This document shows positions 27,151-38,814 of a DNA stretch of 64,000 nucleotides, one piece after another. A program made the translations under genes and the position numbers. Origin of the DNA: Bacteroidota bacterium. Its GTDB lineage: Bacteria; Bacteroidota; Ignavibacteria; Ignavibacteriales; Melioribacteraceae. The DNA lies in contig JAHJUE010000014.1 in assembly GCA_018829205.1 (NCBI GenBank), forward strand, positions 1 through 64,000. Reading direction: 5' to 3'. The first letter of the stretch is position 1. Each line of letters starts with the position of its first letter. The notes beneath the pieces are model-generated. The model had not been told where the DNA came from. It ran no database searches and saw nothing but the letters and a program-made list of their open reading frames with translations.

Positions 27151-27294
27151 AATTTCAAAAAAATCGATAATAAGATAGAATTTACTTGTATTCTTCCGTG
27201 TCGCTATTTATATTAAGTCTAAATAAAATTAGCAACAATGTAATCTTCACTTTTTTGCTGATTATCAAACATTCTTAATTTATTGGAGGAATAT

Positions 27295-28365
27295 ATGGGC
27301 AGTAAATTTGTTTTTTCTTTTTTGATAATTTTATCTTTATTTATAAATATATATGCGCAGGACGATTTTGAATTTAAGCCTGGCGCAACAATAGGAGGAT
27401 ACGGCGAACTTCATTACAACTACGTAAAACCTGAAAACACAGAAGCCACAAAGTCGCTGGATTTTCATAGATTCGTTCTTTTTTACGGTTACAATTGGAC
27501 CGAAAAATGGTCGTTAAAAGCAGAAGTTGAACTTGAACATAACTTTGTTCAAGGCGGGCAGGGAGAACTTGAATTAGAACAAGCATATATAAATTATCAT
27601 CATGCCGATTGGTTTGGATTTCAGATAGGGGTTGTGCTTCCTTCGGTTGGATTAATTAATGAGTATCATGAACCGCCGCTTTTTTTAAGCGTTGAAAGAC
27701 CTGATTATCACAATAAAATTATTCCAACCACGTGGTTCGGAAACGGAGCATCTGTTTACGGGTTTTATAATGGATTCAGTTATAAAGCTACTATCATGGA
27801 AGGATTAAACGCCGATAAATTCAGCGCGTCCGGCGCAATTAGAAGCGGCAGACAAAAAGGATTTAAATCAAACGCGGAAGATTTTTTATACAATGTTAGA
27901 GTTGACTATTTGGATATACCGGGATTGAAAGTAGGCGGTTCTTTTACATATAATAACGCAAACGGCGAAACTGTAGATAATGCAATTACTTTAATTGAAG
28001 GCCATGCTCAATACAATTCTGACAATATTATAAGCACCTTCGAATTAGGGAATATTTCTTATGATAAAGGAAATGTAGAACAATCTTTTGGTTATTATTT
28101 TGATCTTGGTTATAATATTGGCGGCTTGTTAAATTCCGATATGCAGATAATTCCGTTTTTCAGATGGACGCAATATAATACTGCCGCTTCAAGTCCGCTG
28201 GGCCTTAGTTTCGAAGAACAATACGAAGTAAAAAAATGGATGATCGGTTTGTCATTAAAACCGATAAGTTCGGTTGTATTTAAAGTCGATTATGCCGTTC
28301 AAACATCGGGAGCAAATGACGCTGAAACAAACTTGTTCAACTTCGGCGCCGGATATATGTTCTAA
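27295..28365 (+). CDS. Outer-membrane porin-like beta-barrel
   Basis: A 356-residue secreted protein. I start at the ATG at 27295, five bases after GGAGG; an upstream in-frame TTG at 27283 lies before the binding site. Signal peptide to about residue 20 (IYAQ). The mature part opens with the GATIGGYGELHYNYV strand, then alternates short aromatic beta strands up to a terminal Phe (FNFGAGYMF), as in 16-strand-type porins; the YGYNWTEKWSLKAEVELEHNFV stretch is typical of the phosphate-selective porin group in this lineage. It is followed by an FMN-binding protein and a TM protein on the same strand, so it may be an outer-membrane port for that redox set. Substrate not known. Confidence 0.8.
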   Translation: MGSKFVFSFLIILSLFINIYAQDDFEFKPGATIGGYGELHYNYVKPENTEATKSLDFHRFVLFYGYNWTEKWSLKAEVELEHNFVQGGQGELELEQAYINYHHADWFGFQIGVVLPSVGLINEYHEPPLFLSVERPDYHNKIIPTTWFGNGASVYGFYNGFSYKATIMEGLNADKFSASGAIRSGRQKGFKSNAEDFLYNVRVDYLDIPGLKVGGSFTYNNANGETVDNAITLIEGHAQYNSDNIISTFELGNISYDKGNVEQSFGYYFDLGYNIGGLLNSDMQIIPFFRWTQYNTAASSPLGLSFEEQYEVKKWMIGLSLKPISSVVFKVDYAVQTSGANDAETNLFNFGAGYMF

Positions 28366-28383
28366 ACTTAAAAACTAAATTTT

Positions 28384-28920
28384 ATGAAAAAAATATTAAT
28401 AATTATATTATTAGCGGCAGTAAATTTTCCGGCAGCTTCCGCCTCAATTAAGGAAGATACTGAATCTCTTATCCGGGAAAAATTAGGAGATTCTATTACT
28501 ACTGAATTTATTAAATATGAAATTCCAAAAGATATTAAAAAACAGATTGAGACGGAGTCGCGGCAGAAATTCTACGGCGACTTCGTTTATATCTACAAGG
28601 TTTTTCAAAATAATAAATTTCAGAATTTAGTTATTGTCGATAATGTTTACGGTAAATCAATGCCTATTACATTCCTAGTAATTTATGATACTAGCGGCGT
28701 TATATATTCAAGCGGAATTATTAAATACCGTGAACAATACGGAGGCGGCGTAAAAAGCGGTGAGTGGAATAAACAGTTTAACGGCAAGGACCATAAATCT
28801 GTTTACGAAGTCGGCAAGGATATAAGCGCGATTTCGGGAGCTACTATCTCTGTAAACTCAATTACAAGAGGAATAAAAAAACTAACTTTACTCGTTAATA
28901 AAATTAAAGATTCTTTATGA
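28384..28920 (+). CDS. Exported FMN-binding-domain protein
   Basis: A 178-residue protein with a signal peptide (1-20, ASA) and an FMN_bind domain of the NqrC/RnfG kind. The motif SGAT at 151-154 marks Thr154 as the likely site of covalent FMN attachment by an ApbE enzyme; the Asp that often sits three residues before the motif is Ser148 here. The block YREQYGGGVKSGEWNKQFNGK is also typical. It probably carries electrons outside the cytoplasm. It overlaps the next gene by four bases, so the two products likely act together. No apbE gene is seen in the window. Confidence 0.88.
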   Translation: MKKILIIILLAAVNFPAASASIKEDTESLIREKLGDSITTEFIKYEIPKDIKKQIETESRQKFYGDFVYIYKVFQNNKFQNLVIVDNVYGKSMPITFLVIYDTSGVIYSSGIIKYREQYGGGVKSGEWNKQFNGKDHKSVYEVGKDISAISGATISVNSITRGIKKLTLLVNKIKDSL

Positions 28921-29417
28921 AATATGAATTAAATAAACTTGATAAATCGCTTAAGAATTTTCTGGCGTCATTCCTTATTGTTCTTTCAATAGGTGTGGGT
29001 GTCGGATTAATATTTGTAAACCAGACAACAAATTTTTCAGCCGAAGGAGCTGTGGAAAGATTTAACGGAAGCGGCGAATACGAGGATGATAATTTTGAAA
29101 TTAAAGAAAACTATGCAAAATCCGTTTCCGAAATGCTTATGACTACACATAATCATATAATAGGTTTTTCATTTATTTTTTTTATGAACGGACTTATTTT
29201 TTATTTTAATTCAATCATAAAAGGATTTTGGAAAAACTTCCTATTAATTGAGCCGTTTCTATCAATTCTACTTTCATTCGGATCTATTTGGGGTATGAGA
29301 TTTATACACAGCGGTTTTGTTTATGTGACCGTTATTTCCGCAATTTTAATGTATGCTTCTTTTTTTCTGATGGCAGGAATTTCATTGTATGAATTAAAAA
29401 TTAAAAGAAGTTTATAA
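28917..29417 (+). CDS. Small membrane protein with heme-like histidines, partner of the FMN protein
   Basis: A 166-residue inner-membrane protein I do not recognise by family. One TM helix near 15-35, an extracytoplasmic acidic loop (about 40-72), and three more TM helices (about 78-98, 107-128, 133-156). TM2 opens with TTHNHIIGF (His78, His80), and TM3 to TM4 holds RFIHSGF (His131). Paired histidines near helix ends could bind heme b, which would make it a quinol-linked electron donor to the flavoprotein encoded just upstream (four-base overlap). This is inference. It ends two bases from the convergent EamA gene without a visible terminator. Confidence 0.6.
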   Translation: MKYELNKLDKSLKNFLASFLIVLSIGVGVGLIFVNQTTNFSAEGAVERFNGSGEYEDDNFEIKENYAKSVSEMLMTTHNHIIGFSFIFFMNGLIFYFNSIIKGFWKNFLLIEPFLSILLSFGSIWGMRFIHSGFVYVTVISAILMYASFFLMAGISLYELKIKRSL

Positions 29418-32172: not shown

Positions 32173-34659
32173 ATGAGCTTTATTATTTCAAAATATTTTA
32201 GCTGGCTTCAAAAAGATAATCCGGTTGGAGAGGTAGAAAAATATCCTGAAATAGATTCTAACGGTGAAACCTCAGTTAAAGGGATTTATATAATTGGTGA
32301 TTTAACGGGAATTCCTTTATTAAAACTTGCAGCCGAAAGCGGTAAAAAAATAATTAATATTCTGCTAGAAAACTCCGACTTAAAAAAATTAAAAGAAGAG
32401 AATAAGTTAGATGAAATTTATGATGTAATTATTATTGGAGCCGGACCCGGAGGTATAGCCGCCGGACTCGAAGCTTCAAAGCATAATCTGAAATTTAGAA
32501 TTCTGGAATCAGCTCAAAAATTTAATACAATCAATAATTTTCCGAAAGGCAAACCTATTTTTGCCGAACCGAATGATTTTATTCAGAAGTCCGAATTAAA
32601 AATTGACGACGGTACGAAAGAATCCCTCCTTAACAATCTTGAAAATCAAATTAAAAATATTGATCTGCCGGTTGATGAAGGTGTTACTGCGGATACGATT
32701 AAAAAAGTCGGGAATCATTTTCTTATCACAACAAATTCAGGCTCATATAAAACATTTAAAGTAGTGCTTGCCATAGGCAAATCCGGCAATGCAAGAATGT
32801 TAAATATTCCCGGTGAAAACCTGGGGAAAGTTTATAACAGATTATTTGATCCGGCCGATACAACAGATCATAAAGTATTAATAGTAGGAGGCGGCGATAC
32901 TGCTCTTGAAACAGCTTATGCCTCTGCTGAATATGCGGAGTCGGTTACAATTTCTTACAGGAAAAATTCCTTCTCAAGGCCAAAAGATGGGAATCTTGAA
33001 AAACTGAAAGAACTTGAAACTTCAGGCAAGGTAAAAATTTTATTAGAGACAAACGTAAAAGAAATAAAAGAAAATTCGGTATTACTTTTAGAAAAAAACG
33101 GCAATGAAATAGAGATTGAAAATACCCTGGTTTTTTCAATGATAGGAAAAGAACTGCCTGTAGATTTTTTTAAACGAAGTAATATTAAAATGGAAGGGGA
33201 GTTAAACCTTACTTTAAAACTTCAATTTGTTTTATTAATACTTGTTTCAGGGATAATTTATTTCGGAAAAAGCAGCGCCGACTTTTATAAACATTTTTTC
33301 GATAAATCGGAAGGCTGGGGCGATTTAATTTCTTATTTGTTTAAAGGAGAATTCTGGTACAAATTTATTACGCTACCTGGAGTTTTGGTTTCAACTTTGT
33401 CATCCGATTCTGTTAGAATATGGAGCGTTACAAAATATATTAATGCATCTGTTGCTTATCTATCTTTTACATGCGCAGTTATATTAGGTATTTATTTATT
33501 GGCAAAATTCTTAAAAGATAATTTCAATTCATTCACATTTGATTGGAAAACTTTTAAATATTTCTATTTTATATTCATCGGTATTTTTTTTGCGGTTGTT
33601 TTTTTCGGATCCCGTTATTTCGGAATAAACTTGTTTGAAAAGTCGCAGAGTTTTTATTATACAGGACTCTACTCACTTACAATATTAATTTTTGGATTAA
33701 GAAGAATTTATGTAAAACCGACAAAATATATAAAACTTCAAACGTGGAGCTTAATTATTATTCAAGCCTTGCCGCTCTTTATTCTTCCGGAGATTATTTT
33801 GCCCTGGCTCGGAAGTTTGGGCGCTCTTGGTACTGAAAACGGATTTATTTTTACTCAAGTTTTCCCTAAAGAAAGTTACTGGCGGGCATACGGGTTTATT
33901 TTAGCATGGCCGCTTAATTTCAGTAATCTTTATAACGGCAGCATTACTTCCTTCTGGCTTCTGTTCAGCCTGTTTCAAACATTTTTATTTATTCCATTTA
34001 TAGTTTATAGATGGGGCAAGGGAGCTTATTGCGGCTGGATATGCTCATGCGGTGCGATGGCCGAAACCTTGGGGGACGAATACAGAACGCTTGCGCCTCA
34101 CGGACCTAAAGCTAAAAAGTGGGAAAACTTCGGTCAATGGGCCTTGCTTGCAGCGTTTATAATAACAGGATTAAAATTGATTAGTATTCTATATAATATT
34201 GAAATCCCTGTTATAAATGAAAAAATATCCCATGCATCCGATTTTCTTCATAAATTTTATTATTTAGGAATTGACGTAATTTTCGCCGGTGTACTGGGCG
34301 TTGGAGTTTATTTCTTTTTAAGCGGAAGAGTCTGGTGCAGGTTCGGATGTCCGCTAGCTGCGCTAATGCATATTTACTCAAGGTTTTCGCGGTACAGAAT
34401 ATTTTCGGAAAAGAAAAAATGTATATCCTGCAACATATGTACAAAGGTTTGTCATATGGGAATTGACGTAATGAACTATGCGAATAAAGGAATTCCAATG
34501 AATGATGTTGAATGTGTGCGCTGTTCGGCGTGTGTTGTTAATTGCCCCACCCAGGTTTTATCGTTCGGTTCGCTGCCCAAAGCGGATACGGATAATAAAT
34601 TATATAAAGAAATAGAGCTTCAAATTCTTAATAAAAACGATTGGAGAAGCGGACTGTAA
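32173..34659 (+). CDS. Flavoprotein fused to a NapH/NosR-like polyferredoxin membrane protein
   Basis: An 828-residue fusion. Residues 84-340 form a two-Rossmann FAD/NAD(P)-dependent reductase (IIIGAGPGG at 86-94; GGGDTALE at 239-246) with no CxxC disulfide. A segment KGIYIIGDLTG at 36-46, which normally ends such flavoproteins as the FAD-binding GD box, comes before the first Rossmann motif, so the flavodomain looks circularly permuted. From about 345 to 690 six or more TM helices follow, with the cysteine pairs CGWICSCG and WCRFGCP of NapH/NosR type. The C-terminal tail has two [4Fe-4S] motifs, CISCNICTKVC and CVRCSACVVNC. It should pass electrons between a cytosolic pyridine nucleotide and a membrane or outer partner. 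Neighbours are sufE and zwf, both apart by 140 to 190 bp. The donor and acceptor are unknown. Confidence 0.85.
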   Translation: MSFIISKYFSWLQKDNPVGEVEKYPEIDSNGETSVKGIYIIGDLTGIPLLKLAAESGKKIINILLENSDLKKLKEENKLDEIYDVIIIGAGPGGIAAGLEASKHNLKFRILESAQKFNTINNFPKGKPIFAEPNDFIQKSELKIDDGTKESLLNNLENQIKNIDLPVDEGVTADTIKKVGNHFLITTNSGSYKTFKVVLAIGKSGNARMLNIPGENLGKVYNRLFDPADTTDHKVLIVGGGDTALETAYASAEYAESVTISYRKNSFSRPKDGNLEKLKELETSGKVKILLETNVKEIKENSVLLLEKNGNEIEIENTLVFSMIGKELPVDFFKRSNIKMEGELNLTLKLQFVLLILVSGIIYFGKSSADFYKHFFDKSEGWGDLISYLFKGEFWYKFITLPGVLVSTLSSDSVRIWSVTKYINASVAYLSFTCAVILGIYLLAKFLKDNFNSFTFDWKTFKYFYFIFIGIFFAVVFFGSRYFGINLFEKSQSFYYTGLYSLTILIFGLRRIYVKPTKYIKLQTWSLIIIQALPLFILPEIILPWLGSLGALGTENGFIFTQVFPKESYWRAYGFILAWPLNFSNLYNGSITSFWLLFSLFQTFLFIPFIVYRWGKGAYCGWICSCGAMAETLGDEYRTLAPHGPKAKKWENFGQWALLAAFIITGLKLISILYNIEIPVINEKISHASDFLHKFYYLGIDVIFAGVLGVGVYFFLSGRVWCRFGCPLAALMHIYSRFSRYRIFSEKKKCISCNICTKVCHMGIDVMNYANKGIPMNDVECVRCSACVVNCPTQVLSFGSLPKADTDNKLYKEIELQILNKNDWRSGL

Positions 34660-34801: not shown

Positions 34802-36325
34802 ATGATAATTCCAGATAATCATATTTTAGTTATTTTCGGCGCGTCCGGTGATTTAACAAAACGTAAATTAATACCGGAGGTGTTTAATCTTAAACTGCAG
34901 AATCTTCTGCCTAAGGGATTCGCTATTTTAGGCGTGTCCCGTACTGAAATTTCAGATGAAGATTTTAGGCAGGAAATGAAGTCCGCAATTAAGAAATTCG
35001 GCAATAATAAACCGGATGAAAGTATTATTGACGAATTTGTTAAATCAATTTATTATACATCAATAAATACAAAAGAATTTGATGATTATAAAAAGATTAA
35101 AGATAGATTAATTCAGCTCGATAAAATTCATAATTCTAATGAAAATTATATCTTTTATTTATCAACGCCGCCGAGTTTATATGGAATTATTCCGCGGAAT
35201 TTGGGAAAGCATGGACTTAATGATCAATCGGTCGGATGGAAGAAACTTATTGTTGAAAAACCGTTCGGTTATAATTTGAAATCCGCAGTTGAACTTAATA
35301 AAATTATTAAAGAATATTTTTTAGAAGATCAGATATACAGAATCGATCATTATCTTGGAAAAGAAACGGTCCAGAATGTACTTGTAACCAGATTCGCAAA
35401 CGGAATATTCGAGCCTCTTTGGAACAGAAACTATATTCATCATATTGAAGTTACATCTGCCGAAAGCATTGGCGTTGAAGGAAGAGGAGGTTATTACGAA
35501 GGCTCAGGAGCGCTGCGCGATATGATTCAGAATCATCTTCTTCAGCTTGTTGGACTTGTAGCAATGGAAGCGCCTTCCTCTTTCGATTCAAACGCAGTAA
35601 GAAATGAAACGTTAAAAGTTTTTGAATCCCTTCGTCCTATAAATAAAGAAAATGTCGCAGAACAGGTAATAAGAGGTCAATATATAAGCTCCAAAATTAA
35701 GGGAGAAGAAATTAAAGGCTATAGGGAAGAAGAGGGCGTAAATCCCGAATCGAAAACCGAAACATTCGCCGCGGTGAAATTTTATATTGATAACTGGCGT
35801 TGGGGCGGCGTCCCTTTTTATATTAGAAGCGGTAAACGTCTTCCTACAAGGGTTAGCGAAATTGTTGTTCATTTTAAAGAAACTCCACATTATTTATTCG
35901 CTAAAAGAAACCAAATGGAAGGATGCAATCAGCTCGTTATTCGTATTCAGCCGGATGAAGGAATATTATTAAAGTTTGGCATGAAGGTTCCGGGCGCGGG
36001 ATTTAAGGTGCAAAACGTAAATATGGATTTTCATTACAGCGATTTATCAAACGCTTATATTCCAACGGCTTATGAAAGACTAATTCTTGATTGTATGATC
36101 GGAGATTCAACACTGTATGCCAGAGGTGACGCGGTTGAGGCTGCATGGAAATTTATTGACCCTATTCTTCAAGCATGGGAAGAAGACAAATCAATTAAAA
36201 TATTCGGCTATCCGGCAGGTACATGGGGACCTGAAAAAGCGGATGATCTAATTGAAGAAGGATATATAACATGGCGATATCCATGTAAAAATTTATCGGA
36301 CGACGGAAATTATTGTGAGTTATAA
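34802..36325 (+). CDS. zwf: Glucose-6-phosphate 1-dehydrogenase
   Basis: A 507-residue enzyme that oxidises glucose-6-phosphate to 6-phosphogluconolactone with NADP or NAD, the first step of the oxidative pentose-phosphate or Entner-Doudoroff branch. Motifs: Rossmann FGASGDLTKRKLIPEVF (near residue 12), the catalytic RIDHYLGKETVQNV (His in RIDHYLGKE near 180), and the substrate-binding YYEGSGALRDMIQNHLLQL. Length matches the family (about 490-510). It overlaps pgl by eleven bases. Confidence 0.97.
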   Translation: MIIPDNHILVIFGASGDLTKRKLIPEVFNLKLQNLLPKGFAILGVSRTEISDEDFRQEMKSAIKKFGNNKPDESIIDEFVKSIYYTSINTKEFDDYKKIKDRLIQLDKIHNSNENYIFYLSTPPSLYGIIPRNLGKHGLNDQSVGWKKLIVEKPFGYNLKSAVELNKIIKEYFLEDQIYRIDHYLGKETVQNVLVTRFANGIFEPLWNRNYIHHIEVTSAESIGVEGRGGYYEGSGALRDMIQNHLLQLVGLVAMEAPSSFDSNAVRNETLKVFESLRPINKENVAEQVIRGQYISSKIKGEEIKGYREEEGVNPESKTETFAAVKFYIDNWRWGGVPFYIRSGKRLPTRVSEIVVHFKETPHYLFAKRNQMEGCNQLVIRIQPDEGILLKFGMKVPGAGFKVQNVNMDFHYSDLSNAYIPTAYERLILDCMIGDSTLYARGDAVEAAWKFIDPILQAWEEDKSIKIFGYPAGTWGPEKADDLIEEGYITWRYPCKNLSDDGNYCEL

Positions 36326-37052
36326 ATTAAAAATATTTGAAACGCCAGAAGAAGTCGCAAAAGCATTCGCGGAAGATATTAAGGAAACAGTAGAAAAAAA
36401 TATTTCTGAGAAAGGTGAGTGCAATATTTCACTTTCAGGCGGAAGCACGCCGAAACTTCTTTTTGATATTCTTGCGAAAGAATATTCAGATAAAATTAAT
36501 TGGAAAAATATTAATTTCTTTTGGGGTGATGAAAGATGCGTCCCGCCAAACGACAATGAAAGTAATTACGGAATGACAAAAAAACATCTTTTTGATTTTA
36601 TTAATTTACCGGAAGAAAATGTTTATAGAGTTAAAGGAGAAGATGAACCGGAAAAAGAAGCGCTTCGATACGGGGAGTTGATAAAGACTAAGATAAAGAC
36701 CGGGATTGAGGTTAATAATTTTCCGGTATTTGATTTGATGATTTTGGGAATGGGGGATGACGGGCATACAGCTTCGATTTTCCCGGATATCATTGAATTG
36801 TGGGATTCACAAAATATTTGTGAAGTTGCGGAACATCCGGTCACAAATCAAAAAAGAATTACAGTAACAGGTGGAATTATAAATAATTCCAAGAAAATTG
36901 TATTTTTAATAACCGGAAAAAACAAAAATTATGTTCTTAAAAAAATAATTAATAAAGAAGAAGATTATTTAAAATACCCGGCAGCTCTTGTTCAACCTGT
37001 TTCCGGTGAATTATTTTTTTATATAGATAAAAACGCAGCAATTAATTTATAA
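36315..37052 (+). CDS. pgl: 6-phosphogluconolactonase
   Basis: A 245-residue protein of the DevB/Pgl type that hydrolyses 6-phosphogluconolactone. Motifs: NISLSGGSTPKLLFDIL, WKNINFFWGDERCVPPNDNESNYG and FDLMILGMGDDGHTASIFP. It starts with GTG inside the end of zwf (eleven-base overlap, translational coupling), so the two products are made together and act in sequence. A palindromic repeat follows in the gap before the PGI gene. Confidence 0.96.
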   Translation: MSYKLKIFETPEEVAKAFAEDIKETVEKNISEKGECNISLSGGSTPKLLFDILAKEYSDKINWKNINFFWGDERCVPPNDNESNYGMTKKHLFDFINLPEENVYRVKGEDEPEKEALRYGELIKTKIKTGIEVNNFPVFDLMILGMGDDGHTASIFPDIIELWDSQNICEVAEHPVTNQKRITVTGGIINNSKKIVFLITGKNKNYVLKKIINKEEDYLKYPAALVQPVSGELFFYIDKNAAINL

Positions 37053-37060
37053 TCAAATGT

Positions 37061-37085
37061 AGTGGTCGCATACTATGCGATCACT
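37061..37085. repeat. 25-bp palindrome between pgl and the PGI gene
   Basis: AGTGGTCGCATA and TATGCGATCACT are inverse over a single central base, with one G-T pair. It resembles short GATCGCAT-type intergenic palindromes common in this group. It is followed by another possible start region and the PGI ATG at 37117. Confidence 0.55.
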
Positions 37086-37116
37086 TCGTGCAGACATAAA
37101 ATGTGAGAGAAAATTT

Positions 37117-38814
37117 ATGAAACTTACTTTAGGCAAAGAACAAAAAATTTACGATGACAAATTTAAAAAATTAGTCGATGGAAAAGTAATTGAAAGAATC
37201 TGGAACAGGGATCACACTGTATGGAGTGATGATCCTACTGAAATTTCAAATAGACTTGGCTGGCTTGACAGTCCGCAGAACTCTCTTAACGTATTAAAAG
37301 GAATTAATGAATTTGTCGATTCCGTAAAAAAGGAAGGATTTACAAACGCGCTTTTAATGGGAATGGGAGGGTCGAGCCTTGCTCCCGAAGTTTTTAGATT
37401 TACATTTGGCGTAAAAGACGGTTGTTTAGATTTAGATGTTTTGGACAGTACTGATCCGGGAGCAGTTCTCGAAAAAGAAAGAAAACTTGATTTTTCGAAA
37501 ACATTATTTATTGTTTCTACTAAATCGGGCGGGACAGTAGAAACCATGTCGTTTCTAAAATACTTCTACAACAGAGCTTTAGATGTATTAGGTAAAGATG
37601 TTATAAATAAACACTTTATAGCGATCACTGATCCCGGCAGCGGGCTTGAAGATTTAGCAAAATCACTTAATTTTAGAAAAATATTTTTAAATGATCCCAA
37701 TATAGGAGGCAGATATTCTGCATTATCCTTGTTCGGGATTGTCCCTGCCGCGCTAGTAGGAATTGATGCAGAAAAATTACTCCTCAATGCGTTAACAATG
37801 GCCGACGAATGTAAATTAAATTCAGAACAAAACTCAGCCGCTGTTTTAGGTGCTGTTATGGGAGCATTAGGAGAAAACGGTAAGGATAAAATTACATTTA
37901 TTATGTCGCCAAAAATTAAATATTTCGGAGCATGGGTTGAACAGCTTATTGCCGAAAGTACGGGTAAAAACGGAAAAGGGATTCTTCCTGTGGATCTGGA
38001 GGAAATTACCGAACCGATATATTATTCCGTTGATAGATTATTTATATATATGAAATTAGCCGGTGATTCAGAGTTTGATTCGAAAGTTGAAAAACTTAAA
38101 TCCGCTGGATTTACGGTAATCGAAATAATTCTAAATGATATTTATGATTTCGGCGGTGAGTTTTTAAAATGGGAATTGGCCACCGTTGTAGCAGGATGGG
38201 TTCTAAATATTCAGCCCTTTGATCAACCTAATGTTGAATCGGCAAAAATTGTCGCCCGCAGGATGATGAAAACTTATACTGACGAAGGCAAACTTCCGGA
38301 ACTAACCGCTTCACTTGAAGAAGATGGTATAAAAGTTTATGGTGATATTGAAACTACAAATCTGCGAGATGTATTTATAGATTTTTTAAATAATTACAGC
38401 AAAGGTGATTTAAACGGAAACGGAAGAAGTTATGTATCTATTCAAGCTTATATCAAACCTTCTGATGATGCCGCAGAAGCTCTGTTTAATTTAAGAACCG
38501 TTATTCAGAAAAAATATCAATTAGCTACTACGGTAGGATTCGGTCCACGTTTTCTACATTCAACAGGACAGCTTCATAAAGGTGATGCCGGAAATGGATT
38601 ATTTATACAATTTACAGCACATATGCCGGAAGATATTGACATTCCGGAAAACCCAGGAAAAAGAAAATCTTTCTTTTCGTTTGCTGTATTAAAAGACGCT
38701 CAAGCATTGGGAGACAGACAGGCATTACTGGATAATAAACGCAAGTTTATAAGATTTGATTTAGGAAAGGATGTAATTGGCAATCTTAATAAATTAGCCG
38801 GAACGATTAAATAA
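37117..38814 (+). CDS. Phosphoglucose isomerase (PGI domain of the Tal-PGI type)
   Basis: A 565-residue SIS-fold isomerase interconverting glucose-6-phosphate and fructose-6-phosphate. Motifs: MGMGGSSLAPEVFR (near residue 80), STKSGGTVETMSF (near 130), and the C-terminal HSTGQLHKGDAGNGLFIQF. In sequence style it is the PGI half of the bifunctional transaldolase-PGI protein; the N-terminal transaldolase half is missing and no tal gene is in the window. I use the ATG at 37117 rather than one at 37075, which lies inside the end of the palindrome-bearing gap. zwf, pgl and this gene share the strand and form a glucose-6-phosphate node. Confidence 0.9.
   Translation: MKLTLGKEQKIYDDKFKKLVDGKVIERIWNRDHTVWSDDPTEISNRLGWLDSPQNSLNVLKGINEFVDSVKKEGFTNALLMGMGGSSLAPEVFRFTFGVKDGCLDLDVLDSTDPGAVLEKERKLDFSKTLFIVSTKSGGTVETMSFLKYFYNRALDVLGKDVINKHFIAITDPGSGLEDLAKSLNFRKIFLNDPNIGGRYSALSLFGIVPAALVGIDAEKLLLNALTMADECKLNSEQNSAAVLGAVMGALGENGKDKITFIMSPKIKYFGAWVEQLIAESTGKNGKGILPVDLEEITEPIYYSVDRLFIYMKLAGDSEFDSKVEKLKSAGFTVIEIILNDIYDFGGEFLKWELATVVAGWVLNIQPFDQPNVESAKIVARRMMKTYTDEGKLPELTASLEEDGIKVYGDIETTNLRDVFIDFLNNYSKGDLNGNGRSYVSIQAYIKPSDDAAEALFNLRTVIQKKYQLATTVGFGPRFLHSTGQLHKGDAGNGLFIQFTAHMPEDIDIPENPGKRKSFFSFAVLKDAQALGDRQALLDNKRKFIRFDLGKDVIGNLNKLAGTIK

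What the first reader, a model, noticed from the sequence alone, without database searches (positions are those of the whole stretch)
32173..34659. Flavoprotein with a displaced GD box fused to a NapH-type polyferredoxin
Seen: the FAD GD-box segment KGIYIIGDLTG (36-46) comes before the first Rossmann motif GAGPGG (89-94), and nothing like it follows the second Rossmann half. Then TM helices, two cysteine pairs and two [4Fe-4S] motifs follow in the same chain. No CxxC disulfide. Such a permuted reductase joined to a membrane polyferredoxin would move electrons from NAD(P)H to the membrane or back. The partner is not in the window.
Basis: partly seen in the sequence, partly recalled or inferred. 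Interest (0 to 1): 0.6.

Follow-up and report, generated by a model that had tools for sequence, protein, structure and literature searches.

The report
Permuted flavoprotein fused to membrane polyferredoxin
The gene codes for a membrane electron-transfer protein whose flavin-binding domain has its parts in a swapped order, found in many bacterial phyla and in several of them beside genes for making arsenic-containing sugars, a link not yet tested in the laboratory.

Summary
The 828-aa ORF (32173-34659) has its FAD "GD box" at residues 36-46, before GxGxxG (89-94), and none was found between the NAD(P) domain and the membrane part. A profile of the N-terminal segment alone matches 20 PDB sequences, all superfamily flavoproteins in their GD-box region. 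GD is kept in 47 of 48 aligned sequences.

The permuted head has a second setting: behind a 2[4Fe-4S] ferredoxin, beside genes with about 20 and 28-43 CxxCH motifs in 7 of 7 neighbourhoods. The membrane module is a NapH relative with its own CX3CXC motif. As a separate gene it has a conventional flavoprotein gene just upstream in 44 of 50 loci. So one module is fed by two kinds of head.

Among 38 genomes of the window's kin, fused gene and ArsS are in 9 each, 8 shared. The arsenosugar link is not exclusive: 20 of 45 more distant carriers have ArsS. Most likely: NADPH to FAD to Fe-S to membrane, a redox unit of organoarsenic clusters. FAD contact, acceptor and direction are not shown.

The parts
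32173..34659 (+). the whole gene: permuted NAD(P)H/FAD reductase fused to membrane polyferredoxin, 828 aa
   Evidence: ORF; full-length homologues
32239..32403 (+). displaced FAD-binding (GD-box) segment, residues 23-77; GD box GDLTG at 42-46
   Evidence: profile search, 20 of 20 PDB hits at the GD-box region of superfamily flavoproteins, E 3e-5 to 0.009; weaker stretches against glutathione reductases in the whole-protein search; G42 50/50, D43 49/50
32413..33198 (+). FAD Rossmann half (GAGPGG 89-94) and NAD(P) Rossmann half (GGGDTALE 239-246), YpdA/TrxR-like core, residues 81-342
   Evidence: Pfam Pyr_redox_3 86-341; YpdA structures Z 24.4, rmsd 2.7 (alignment starting at residue 80 and running on to 767); basic residues R263 48/48, R269 47/48, K271 46/48
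33208..34320 (+). membrane region, residues 346-716, nine long helices of which probably eight cross
   Evidence: DSSP on the AF2 model; hydropathy averaged over 48 aligned sequences
34030..34050 (+). CX3CXC motif C620-GWI-C624-S-C626
   Evidence: invariant cysteines in 48 of 48; also in 50 of 50 standalone modules
34336..34353 (+). CX3CP motif, residues 722-727
34420..34545 (+). two [4Fe-4S] motifs, C750xxCxxCxxxC760-HMGIDV and C781xxCxxCxxxC791P
   Evidence: Pfam Fer4_9 749-795 over cut-off; weak fold match to 2[4Fe-4S] proteins, Z about 5; conservation
34802..38814 (+). downstream neighbours: zwf, pgl and a phosphoglucose-isomerase-type gene (NADPH-producing pentose phosphate route); context, not part of the protein
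   Evidence: NCBIfam TIGR00871 and TIGR01198 over cut-off, NF007080 below cut-off; the zwf-type and PGI-type neighbour clusters occur in 4 (the window's included) and 7 of 65 loci

Best explanation
It is an NADPH-dependent membrane electron-transfer unit made as one chain. The head is a YpdA/thioredoxin-reductase-like flavoprotein that has been circularly permuted: the C-terminal strand-GD-box-helix segment that normally completes the FAD site now comes first. That leaves the C-terminus of the NAD(P) domain free to run straight into a membrane module. Proposed path: NADPH reduces FAD; FAD passes single electrons to the two cytosolic [4Fe-4S] clusters; these pass them to the CX3CXC/CX3CP membrane site and on to a membrane or extracytoplasmic acceptor. 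Shown by sequence: the parts, their order and conservation, and the exchange of this head for a canonical one of another subfamily in the split form. Inferred: FAD contact, NADPH as donor, direction, cofactors. Biological role, most likely: the redox unit of arsenosugar-type (ArsS) gene clusters, with the DUF547 protein as a candidate acceptor or co-worker. Within this, I put 0.85 on the anatomy (lowered from 0.9 for the alignment caveat under evidence against), about 0.75 on NAD(P)H-to-membrane electron flow, about 0.6 on the arsenosugar link, and only about 0.4 on an extracytoplasmic acceptor as against the radical-SAM enzyme or quinone.
For: Permutation. Same permutation in a second family with an N-terminal ferredoxin; that family sits beside genes with about 20 and with 28-43 CxxCH motifs in 7 of 7 neighbourhoods. 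Head homology: YpdA Z 24.4. Split form: a flavoprotein whose GD box is conventionally placed (seen in L141) on the same strand just upstream of the standalone module in 44 of 50 loci. Fused and split modules are two sides of one branch, support 100* in a quick tree, and share CX3CXC. Arsenosugar link: among 38 genomes (the window's own and its relatives) fused gene in 9, ArsS over cut-off in 9, DUF547 in 9; fused and ArsS overlap in 8, the ninth fused genome (68% complete) having an ArsS fragment at a contig end; Fisher p 1.6e-6 without correction for kinship. In the class, 14 of 14 ArsS genomes of the phylum sample have the module, 6 fused and 8 split, against 3 module genomes without ArsS. 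Neighbourhood: at least one of ArsS, TIGR04169-like, DUF2064/TIGR04282-like or DUF547 in 31 of 65 loci, ArsS in 12, from Ignavibacteria, Aminicenantes, Chrysiogenales, Fibrobacteres, Chitinivibrionales and Spirochaetes (names). In G066 the split pair lies within about 10.5 kb together with ArsM, PNP, ArsS, TIGR04169-like and DUF547 genes. NADPH: conserved R263/R269/K271; zwf and pgl next door.
Against: Direction, acceptor, activity and FAD contact are untested. In the structural alignments many rows run on from the head to model residues 752-767, that is, a sequential aligner gives a few residues of the ferredoxin part the place of the C-terminal segment of YpdA/TrxR; it cannot by design pair the N-terminal segment with it, so this neither shows nor excludes that residues 36-66 fill the site. 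The nearest subfamily, YpdA, reads LAGVVCGG at that place in three relatives looked at, so it lacks the Asp of the GD box. Of 45 more distant genomes carrying the fused gene or a piece of it, only 20 have ArsS over cut-off; it is missing from all six Scalindua/Anammoxibacter genomes, although draft assemblies can hide genes. In 296 genomes of the phylum, 113 ArsS-positive genomes lack the fused gene and 3 of 10 fused-gene genomes (one genus) lack ArsS (p 0.056). 23 of 69 genomes with the module lack ArsS and 74 of 120 ArsS genomes lack the module. ArsS or TIGR04169 lay inside the fetched stretch in only 7 of 50 split loci, and those 7 were chosen for fetching because ArsS was near. Four of the 44 flavoprotein pairs served as queries and match themselves. 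In the window's genome the three gene sets lie on three contigs. 34 of 65 loci showed none of the markers, though many flanks are cut short. NADPH over NADH is read from three basic residues by analogy recalled from E. coli TrxR.
Confidence: 0.55

Rival explanations
1. A general NAD(P)H-to-quinone or NAD(P)H-to-periplasm electron-transfer unit with no special tie to arsenic. Its presence beside ArsS genes reflects shared lineages or a common redox need, as for the multiheme-cytochrome operons that hold the other permuted family.
For: 23 of 69 module genomes lack ArsS; 25 of 45 more distant genomes with the fused gene or a piece of it lack ArsS over cut-off; the sister permuted family sits in cytochrome operons; NapH-like modules are reported to serve many different oxidoreductases (PMC8238504, passages read).
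Against: Near-identical distribution of fused gene, ArsS and DUF547 among 38 genomes; ArsS near the gene in several phyla; flavoprotein-module pairs inside clusters.
Confidence: 0.3
2. The low-potential reductase that keeps the radical-SAM enzyme ArsS reduced: NADPH to FAD to 2[4Fe-4S] to ArsS, with the membrane part perhaps using ion-motive force for the uphill step.
For: Radical-SAM enzymes need a low-potential electron donor (established knowledge); ArsS co-distribution and nearness; Fe-S clusters presumably on the same side as the NAD(P)H head.
Against: Most ArsS genomes of the phylum sample lack the module (74 of 120), and module genomes without ArsS exist; no ion channel signature was looked for.
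Confidence: 0.2
3. The N-terminal segment is a vestige and does not bind FAD; the flavin site is completed in another way (for example by another part of the chain or a second subunit) or the head is inactive.
For: Direct FAD contact could not be measured, as no coordinates or cofactors were available; structural alignments run on into the ferredoxin part; one homologue has GSLSG instead of GDLTG (L084).
Against: GDLTG in 42 and GD in 47 of 48 aligned sequences; strand 38-40 and helices 42-45, 50-66 predicted with good confidence; the second permuted family keeps the segment as GELGG in 7 of 7 aligned.
Confidence: 0.08

Closest known systems
YpdA / Bdr bacillithiol disulfide reductase and thioredoxin-reductase-type ferredoxin-NADP reductases
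   Same: FAD and NAD(P) Rossmann halves and fold (7a7b Z 24.4, rmsd 2.7, 270 residues aligned, of which a few lie beyond the head); no CxxC in the FNR and YpdA types (recalled)
   Different: GD-box segment moved from the C- to the N-terminus; fused to a membrane module; score 130.5 against a YpdA cut-off of 339.9
NapH / NosR / PceC (RdhC) membrane Fe-S proteins
   Same: membrane helices, CX3CP at the second motif, two C-terminal [4Fe-4S] motifs as in NapH and NosR (motifs of these proteins as described in PMC5928378, passages read)
   Different: first motif CX3CXC, three invariant cysteines; no FMN-binding domain among the Pfam matches; own NAD(P)H/FAD head; 55.4 bits against a NapH/MauN cut-off of 213
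MsrQ-like, PepSY-like and NQR/RNF-like proteins with an NAD-binding domain (PMC8238504, passages read)
   Same: one chain that joins a cytosolic NAD(P)H domain to a membrane electron-transfer domain
   Different: their NAD domain is PF00175 and their membrane parts are haem- or flavin-based or PepSY-type; here a permuted Pyr_redox head and a polyferredoxin
Arsenosugar (ArsM/ArsS) gene clusters
   Same: neighbours or co-occurring genes score over the curated cut-offs for ArsS, TIGR04169 and TIGR04282, and TIGR04283, ArsM NF038099 and PNP (in the window's genome or G066); the ArsM-like and TIGR04283-like neighbours tested are below cut-off
   Different: no title or abstract start listed by my searches names a flavoprotein-polyferredoxin component (passages of one paper read)

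Membership tests
two-dinucleotide-binding-domain flavoproteins (disulfide-reductase superfamily) | FAD GxGxxG and NAD(P) GxGxxG/A Rossmann motifs | tested here: met
   Pyr_redox_3 and Pyr_redox_2 over cut-off; glycines invariant in 48 aligned sequences
two-dinucleotide-binding-domain flavoproteins (disulfide-reductase superfamily) | GD-box segment after the NAD(P) domain | tested here: not met
   segment lies N-terminal; none seen in residues 300-360
thioredoxin reductase | redox-active CxxC | tested here: not met
   no Cys before residue 434; 81.1 bits against cut-off 343.45
YpdA/Bdr | curated family score | tested here: not met
   130.5 bits against cut-off 339.9
NapH/MauN/NosR ferredoxin-type membrane proteins | two CX3CP motifs | tested here: not met
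   first motif is CX3CXC (48 of 48, with P before the third Cys in 2), second is CX3CP; the genome's own NapH-like paralogue L003 has two CX3CP there
NapH/MauN/NosR ferredoxin-type membrane proteins | two C-terminal [4Fe-4S] motifs | tested here: met
NapH/MauN/NosR ferredoxin-type membrane proteins | curated family score | tested here: not met
   55.4 against 213.05 (NapH/MauN), 36.5 against 234 (NapH), 39.1 against 1000 (NosR)
NapH/MauN/NosR ferredoxin-type membrane proteins | fold of the membrane part | tested here: inconclusive
   no solved membrane relative came up for the module
arsenosugar biosynthesis clusters | gene lies with ArsS or its cluster genes | tested here: inconclusive
   yes in 12 of 65 loci for ArsS and 31 of 65 for any marker; not in the window, where ArsS and DUF547 are on other contigs
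arsenosugar biosynthesis clusters | needed for an arsenosugar product | not testable with these tools
   no experiment possible

The most novel reading that the evidence does not exclude
Many bacterial arsenosugar-type clusters include a dedicated, undescribed NAD(P)H-driven membrane redox unit built on a CX3CXC polyferredoxin. Evolution has supplied its flavoprotein head twice from different subfamilies: once as a separate conventional gene, once as a fused, circularly permuted YpdA-like domain whose permutation made the fusion topologically possible. The same permuted head, joined to a ferredoxin, drives operons with cytochromes of about 20 and up to 43 haem motifs.
Probability: 0.4. Interest if true: 0.78.

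Novelty: new variant of a known kind. Interest (0 to 1): 0.62.

Why it matters
A natural circular permutation of the disulfide-reductase fold, kept across many phyla and in two domain settings, would be a clear case of how rearranging a fold opens a free terminus for fusion. The head exchange (separate conventional gene or fused permuted domain) on one membrane module points to a function that can be tested directly. If the arsenosugar link holds, it names a redox component for a bacterial pathway about which I found little in the papers searched, and gives DUF547, a domain of unknown function, a context.

Tried and rejected
Chance or an annotation artefact of the N-terminus (wrong start, chimeric assembly): rejected, since separate genomes from many phyla keep the segment and another family shares it.

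A normal GD box overlooked after the NAD(P) domain: looked for in residues 300-360 and not seen. In the same call the regular expression for the N-terminal box matched only 41 of 48 rows; by alignment 47 of 48 have GD and one GS.

Thioredoxin or bacillithiol disulfide reductase: rejected for lack of cysteines and curated score.

Solved relatives of the membrane module: none found; only the ferredoxin part matched, weakly. This is no evidence of a new fold.

Direct test that residues 36-66 touch FAD: not possible, as the model comes without coordinates.

Papers: searches. Nothing in the listed titles and abstract starts described a permuted flavoprotein of this kind or an arsenosugar electron-transfer unit. 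I read passages of PMC8238504, PMC5928378 and PMC12159101; all other papers only as listings. The held library lacks most subscription journals.

Rows dropped: the first alignment holds the window's sequence and 49 of the 67 loci; A1 holds the window's and 47 (L070 and L081 left out of those 49). The neighbour count holds the window's own L001 and 64 of the 67 loci (L030, L032 and the Clostridium reductase L091 left out); some are near relatives of each other. Of 59 genomes with a standalone module, 50 were fetched (L106 and L136-L184); 9 were not. In the head tree only 8 of 14 standalone rows were parsed, and the fused label needs two changes, the long-branch row L084 standing among the canonical rows. 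The loci of G178 and G207 are rich in G+C by the look of their ORFs and my ORF calling there was unreliable, so I drew nothing from their neighbours.

Scalindua L076 and L078 and Blastocatellia L083 have the gene in two reading frames; they were not repaired and were only counted as pieces.
Full report
What is there. The ORF at 32173-34659 (+) codes for 828 aa. Pfam finds Pyr_redox_3 at 86-341, Fer4_5, and a 4Fe-4S dicluster at 749-795. Curated NCBIfam models for YpdA and NapH match far below cut-off.

The GD box is displaced. A profile made from the N-terminal segment alone (48 sequences, 66 positions) matched 20 distinct PDB sequences at E<=0.01 (best 3e-5); all 20 are glutathione, trypanothione or glutathione-amide reductases, dihydrolipoyl dehydrogenases, a soluble transhydrogenase or AhpF, matched at one segment that holds their GD box (visible in the two printed alignments, for the others recalled). 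The whole-protein search had already shown weaker stretches of the same kind (residues 27-77 against 298-349 of a glutathione reductase). In residues 300-360 no such segment was seen in the window protein or the other 47. Among the 48 the box reads GDLTG in 42, GD in 47 and GS in one. The AlphaFold2 model (mean pLDDT 82.5, pTM 0.73) places a strand at 38-40 and helices at 42-45 and 50-66. VIA-align puts residues from about 80 on against the N-terminus of YpdA (Z 24.4, rmsd 2.7, 270 residues). Many of these alignments run on to residues 752-767, giving a few residues of the ferredoxin part the place of the reductase's C-terminal segment; a sequential aligner cannot pair the N-terminal segment with it. 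I could not measure the FAD contact, because coordinates are not given. The nearest subfamily, YpdA, reads LAGVVCGG there in three relatives looked at, so the Asp of the box is not shared with it.

A second family with the same permutation. Relatives of the window's genome hold proteins of about 445 aa in the order hydrophobic N-terminus, two [4Fe-4S] motifs, GELGG segment, FAD Rossmann, NAD Rossmann, stop. In 7 of 7 neighbourhoods examined this gene follows a gene for a protein of about 290-320 aa, membrane-like by eye, and precedes genes with about 20 and with 28-43 CxxCH motifs (in L125 the first cytochrome is broken into two frames, and some stretches are cut at the end). In a quick tree of the FAD-NAD core the 8 parsed rows form one clade (100*); the fused label needs two changes, with the archaeal long-branch row L084 apart. 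The search of the window's own genome showed no such standalone protein.

The membrane module and its two kinds of head. Alone, the module (window residues 340-828) has relatives in 69 of 296 genomes of the phylum, 10 of them with the fused gene. Of the 59 others I fetched 50. In 44 of 50 a flavoprotein gene matches on the same strand within 1.5 kb upstream of the module's match (four of the 44 supplied the queries). The two tested are of the NirB/NorW/CoA-disulfide-reductase kind, below the cut-offs, and the one read through has a conventional GD box at about residue 277 of 446. All 50 modules carry CX3CXC. A quick tree of 48 fused and 49 split modules puts the two groups on the two sides of one branch with support 100*. 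So one membrane module is fed either by a separate conventional flavoprotein or by a fused, permuted one. I take this as the best evidence that the head passes electrons to the module. Papers on NapH, NosR and PceC describe or propose the membrane module as an electron carrier between quinol and extracytoplasmic enzymes (PMC5928378 and PMC8238504, passages read).

Link to organoarsenic clusters. Among 65 loci of the fused gene or its pieces, 12 have ArsS, 9 the TIGR04169-like protein, 12 a DUF2064/TIGR04282-like protein and 22 a DUF547 protein within the fetched flank; 31 have at least one (with small profiles built here). Representatives are over the curated cut-offs for ArsS, TIGR04169 and TIGR04282. 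Among 38 genomes (the window's and its relatives) the fused gene is in 9 and ArsS over cut-off in 9, overlapping in 8; the ninth fused-gene genome, 68% complete, has an ArsS fragment at a contig end, and the ninth ArsS genome (G029) has the split form. DUF547 is in the same 9 genomes as ArsS. In the phylum sample all 14 ArsS genomes of the window's class have the module, 6 fused and 8 split, while 3 genomes of the class have the module without ArsS. In the window's own genome ArsS and TIGR04169 lie on contig C22, and DUF547 with TIGR04282 and TIGR04283 on C1. In G066 and G151 the split pair lies in a stretch with ArsS, TIGR04169-like, DUF547 and DUF2064 genes; in G066 ArsM (NF038099) and purine-nucleoside phosphorylase genes were confirmed by curated models.

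Limits of that link. Of 45 more distant genomes holding the gene or a piece, 20 have ArsS over cut-off and 31 have DUF547 (0 of 14 control genomes have DUF547). In 296 genomes of the phylum, 46 of 69 module genomes have ArsS against 74 of 227 others (p 5e-7), but 7 of 10 fused-gene genomes against 113 of 286 gives only p 0.056. None of these tests corrects for kinship. ArsS or TIGR04169 was inside the fetched stretch in 7 of 50 split loci, all among those fetched first because ArsS was near (most later stretches reach about 5 kb to each side). The association is real in several lineages but not exclusive.

How it most likely works. Three basic residues (R263 48/48, R269 47/48, K271 46/48) stand about where thioredoxin reductase binds the NADPH phosphate (recalled), and the window gene is followed by zwf and pgl, so NADPH is the likely donor. 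If both the head and the [4Fe-4S] clusters are cytosolic, an even number of membrane crossings is needed; the model shows nine long helices, of which 392-410 is the least hydrophobic, so eight crossings is my reading. Electrons would go from NADPH to FAD to the [4Fe-4S] pair and the CX3CXC/CX3CP site, then to an extracytoplasmic partner, quinone, or back to a cytosolic enzyme such as ArsS. The neighbouring DUF547 proteins mostly begin with signal-like hydrophobic segments (sequences, judged by eye), which is why I slightly favour an extracytoplasmic partner.

Novelty. All single parts are known kinds. The permutation kept across phyla, the CX3CXC module, the head exchange and the organoarsenic context were not named in the titles and abstract starts that my searches listed, which cover only an open-licence library. 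I rate it a new variant of a known kind.

Noticed in passing
L122-L128 (neighbourhoods of the standalone permuted ferredoxin-flavoprotein): Conserved order: 290-320-aa membrane-like protein, (TPR-type protein in 4 of 7, one of them tested), ferredoxin-permuted flavoprotein, cytochrome with about 20 CxxCH, giant cytochrome with 28-43 CxxCH. Looks like an NAD(P)H-to-outside electron export operon.
   Followed up: partly
window 27283-29417 (+): Outer-membrane-barrel-like protein, FMN_bind protein (28384-28920, with SGATIS, like the covalent flavinylation motif) and a small protein without a Pfam match: a possible extracytosolic flavinylated electron carrier.
   Followed up: no
G029 contig C5 (L106 9585-12244, minus strand): Split flavoprotein and membrane polyferredoxin next to a citrate lyase alpha gene, in the only genome of the 38 with ArsS over cut-off but no fused gene.
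   Followed up: partly
first [4Fe-4S] motif, window residues 750-766: CISCNICTKVCHMGIDVM is nearly constant across phyla, with His after the fourth Cys in 50 of 50; split modules mostly have CISCGNCSTYCE there. The constancy suggests a docking or tuning role.
   Followed up: no
L071, L081, L083 (Acidobacteria/Blastocatellia): Genes of the clusters identified in L071 as ECF sigma factor and zinc-finger anti-sigma factor sit just upstream of the fused gene in these three loci, hinting at stress control.
   Followed up: no
L076, L078 (Scalindua), L083 (Blastocatellia): The gene is spread over two reading frames in these assemblies; assembly error or decay, not resolved.
   Followed up: no
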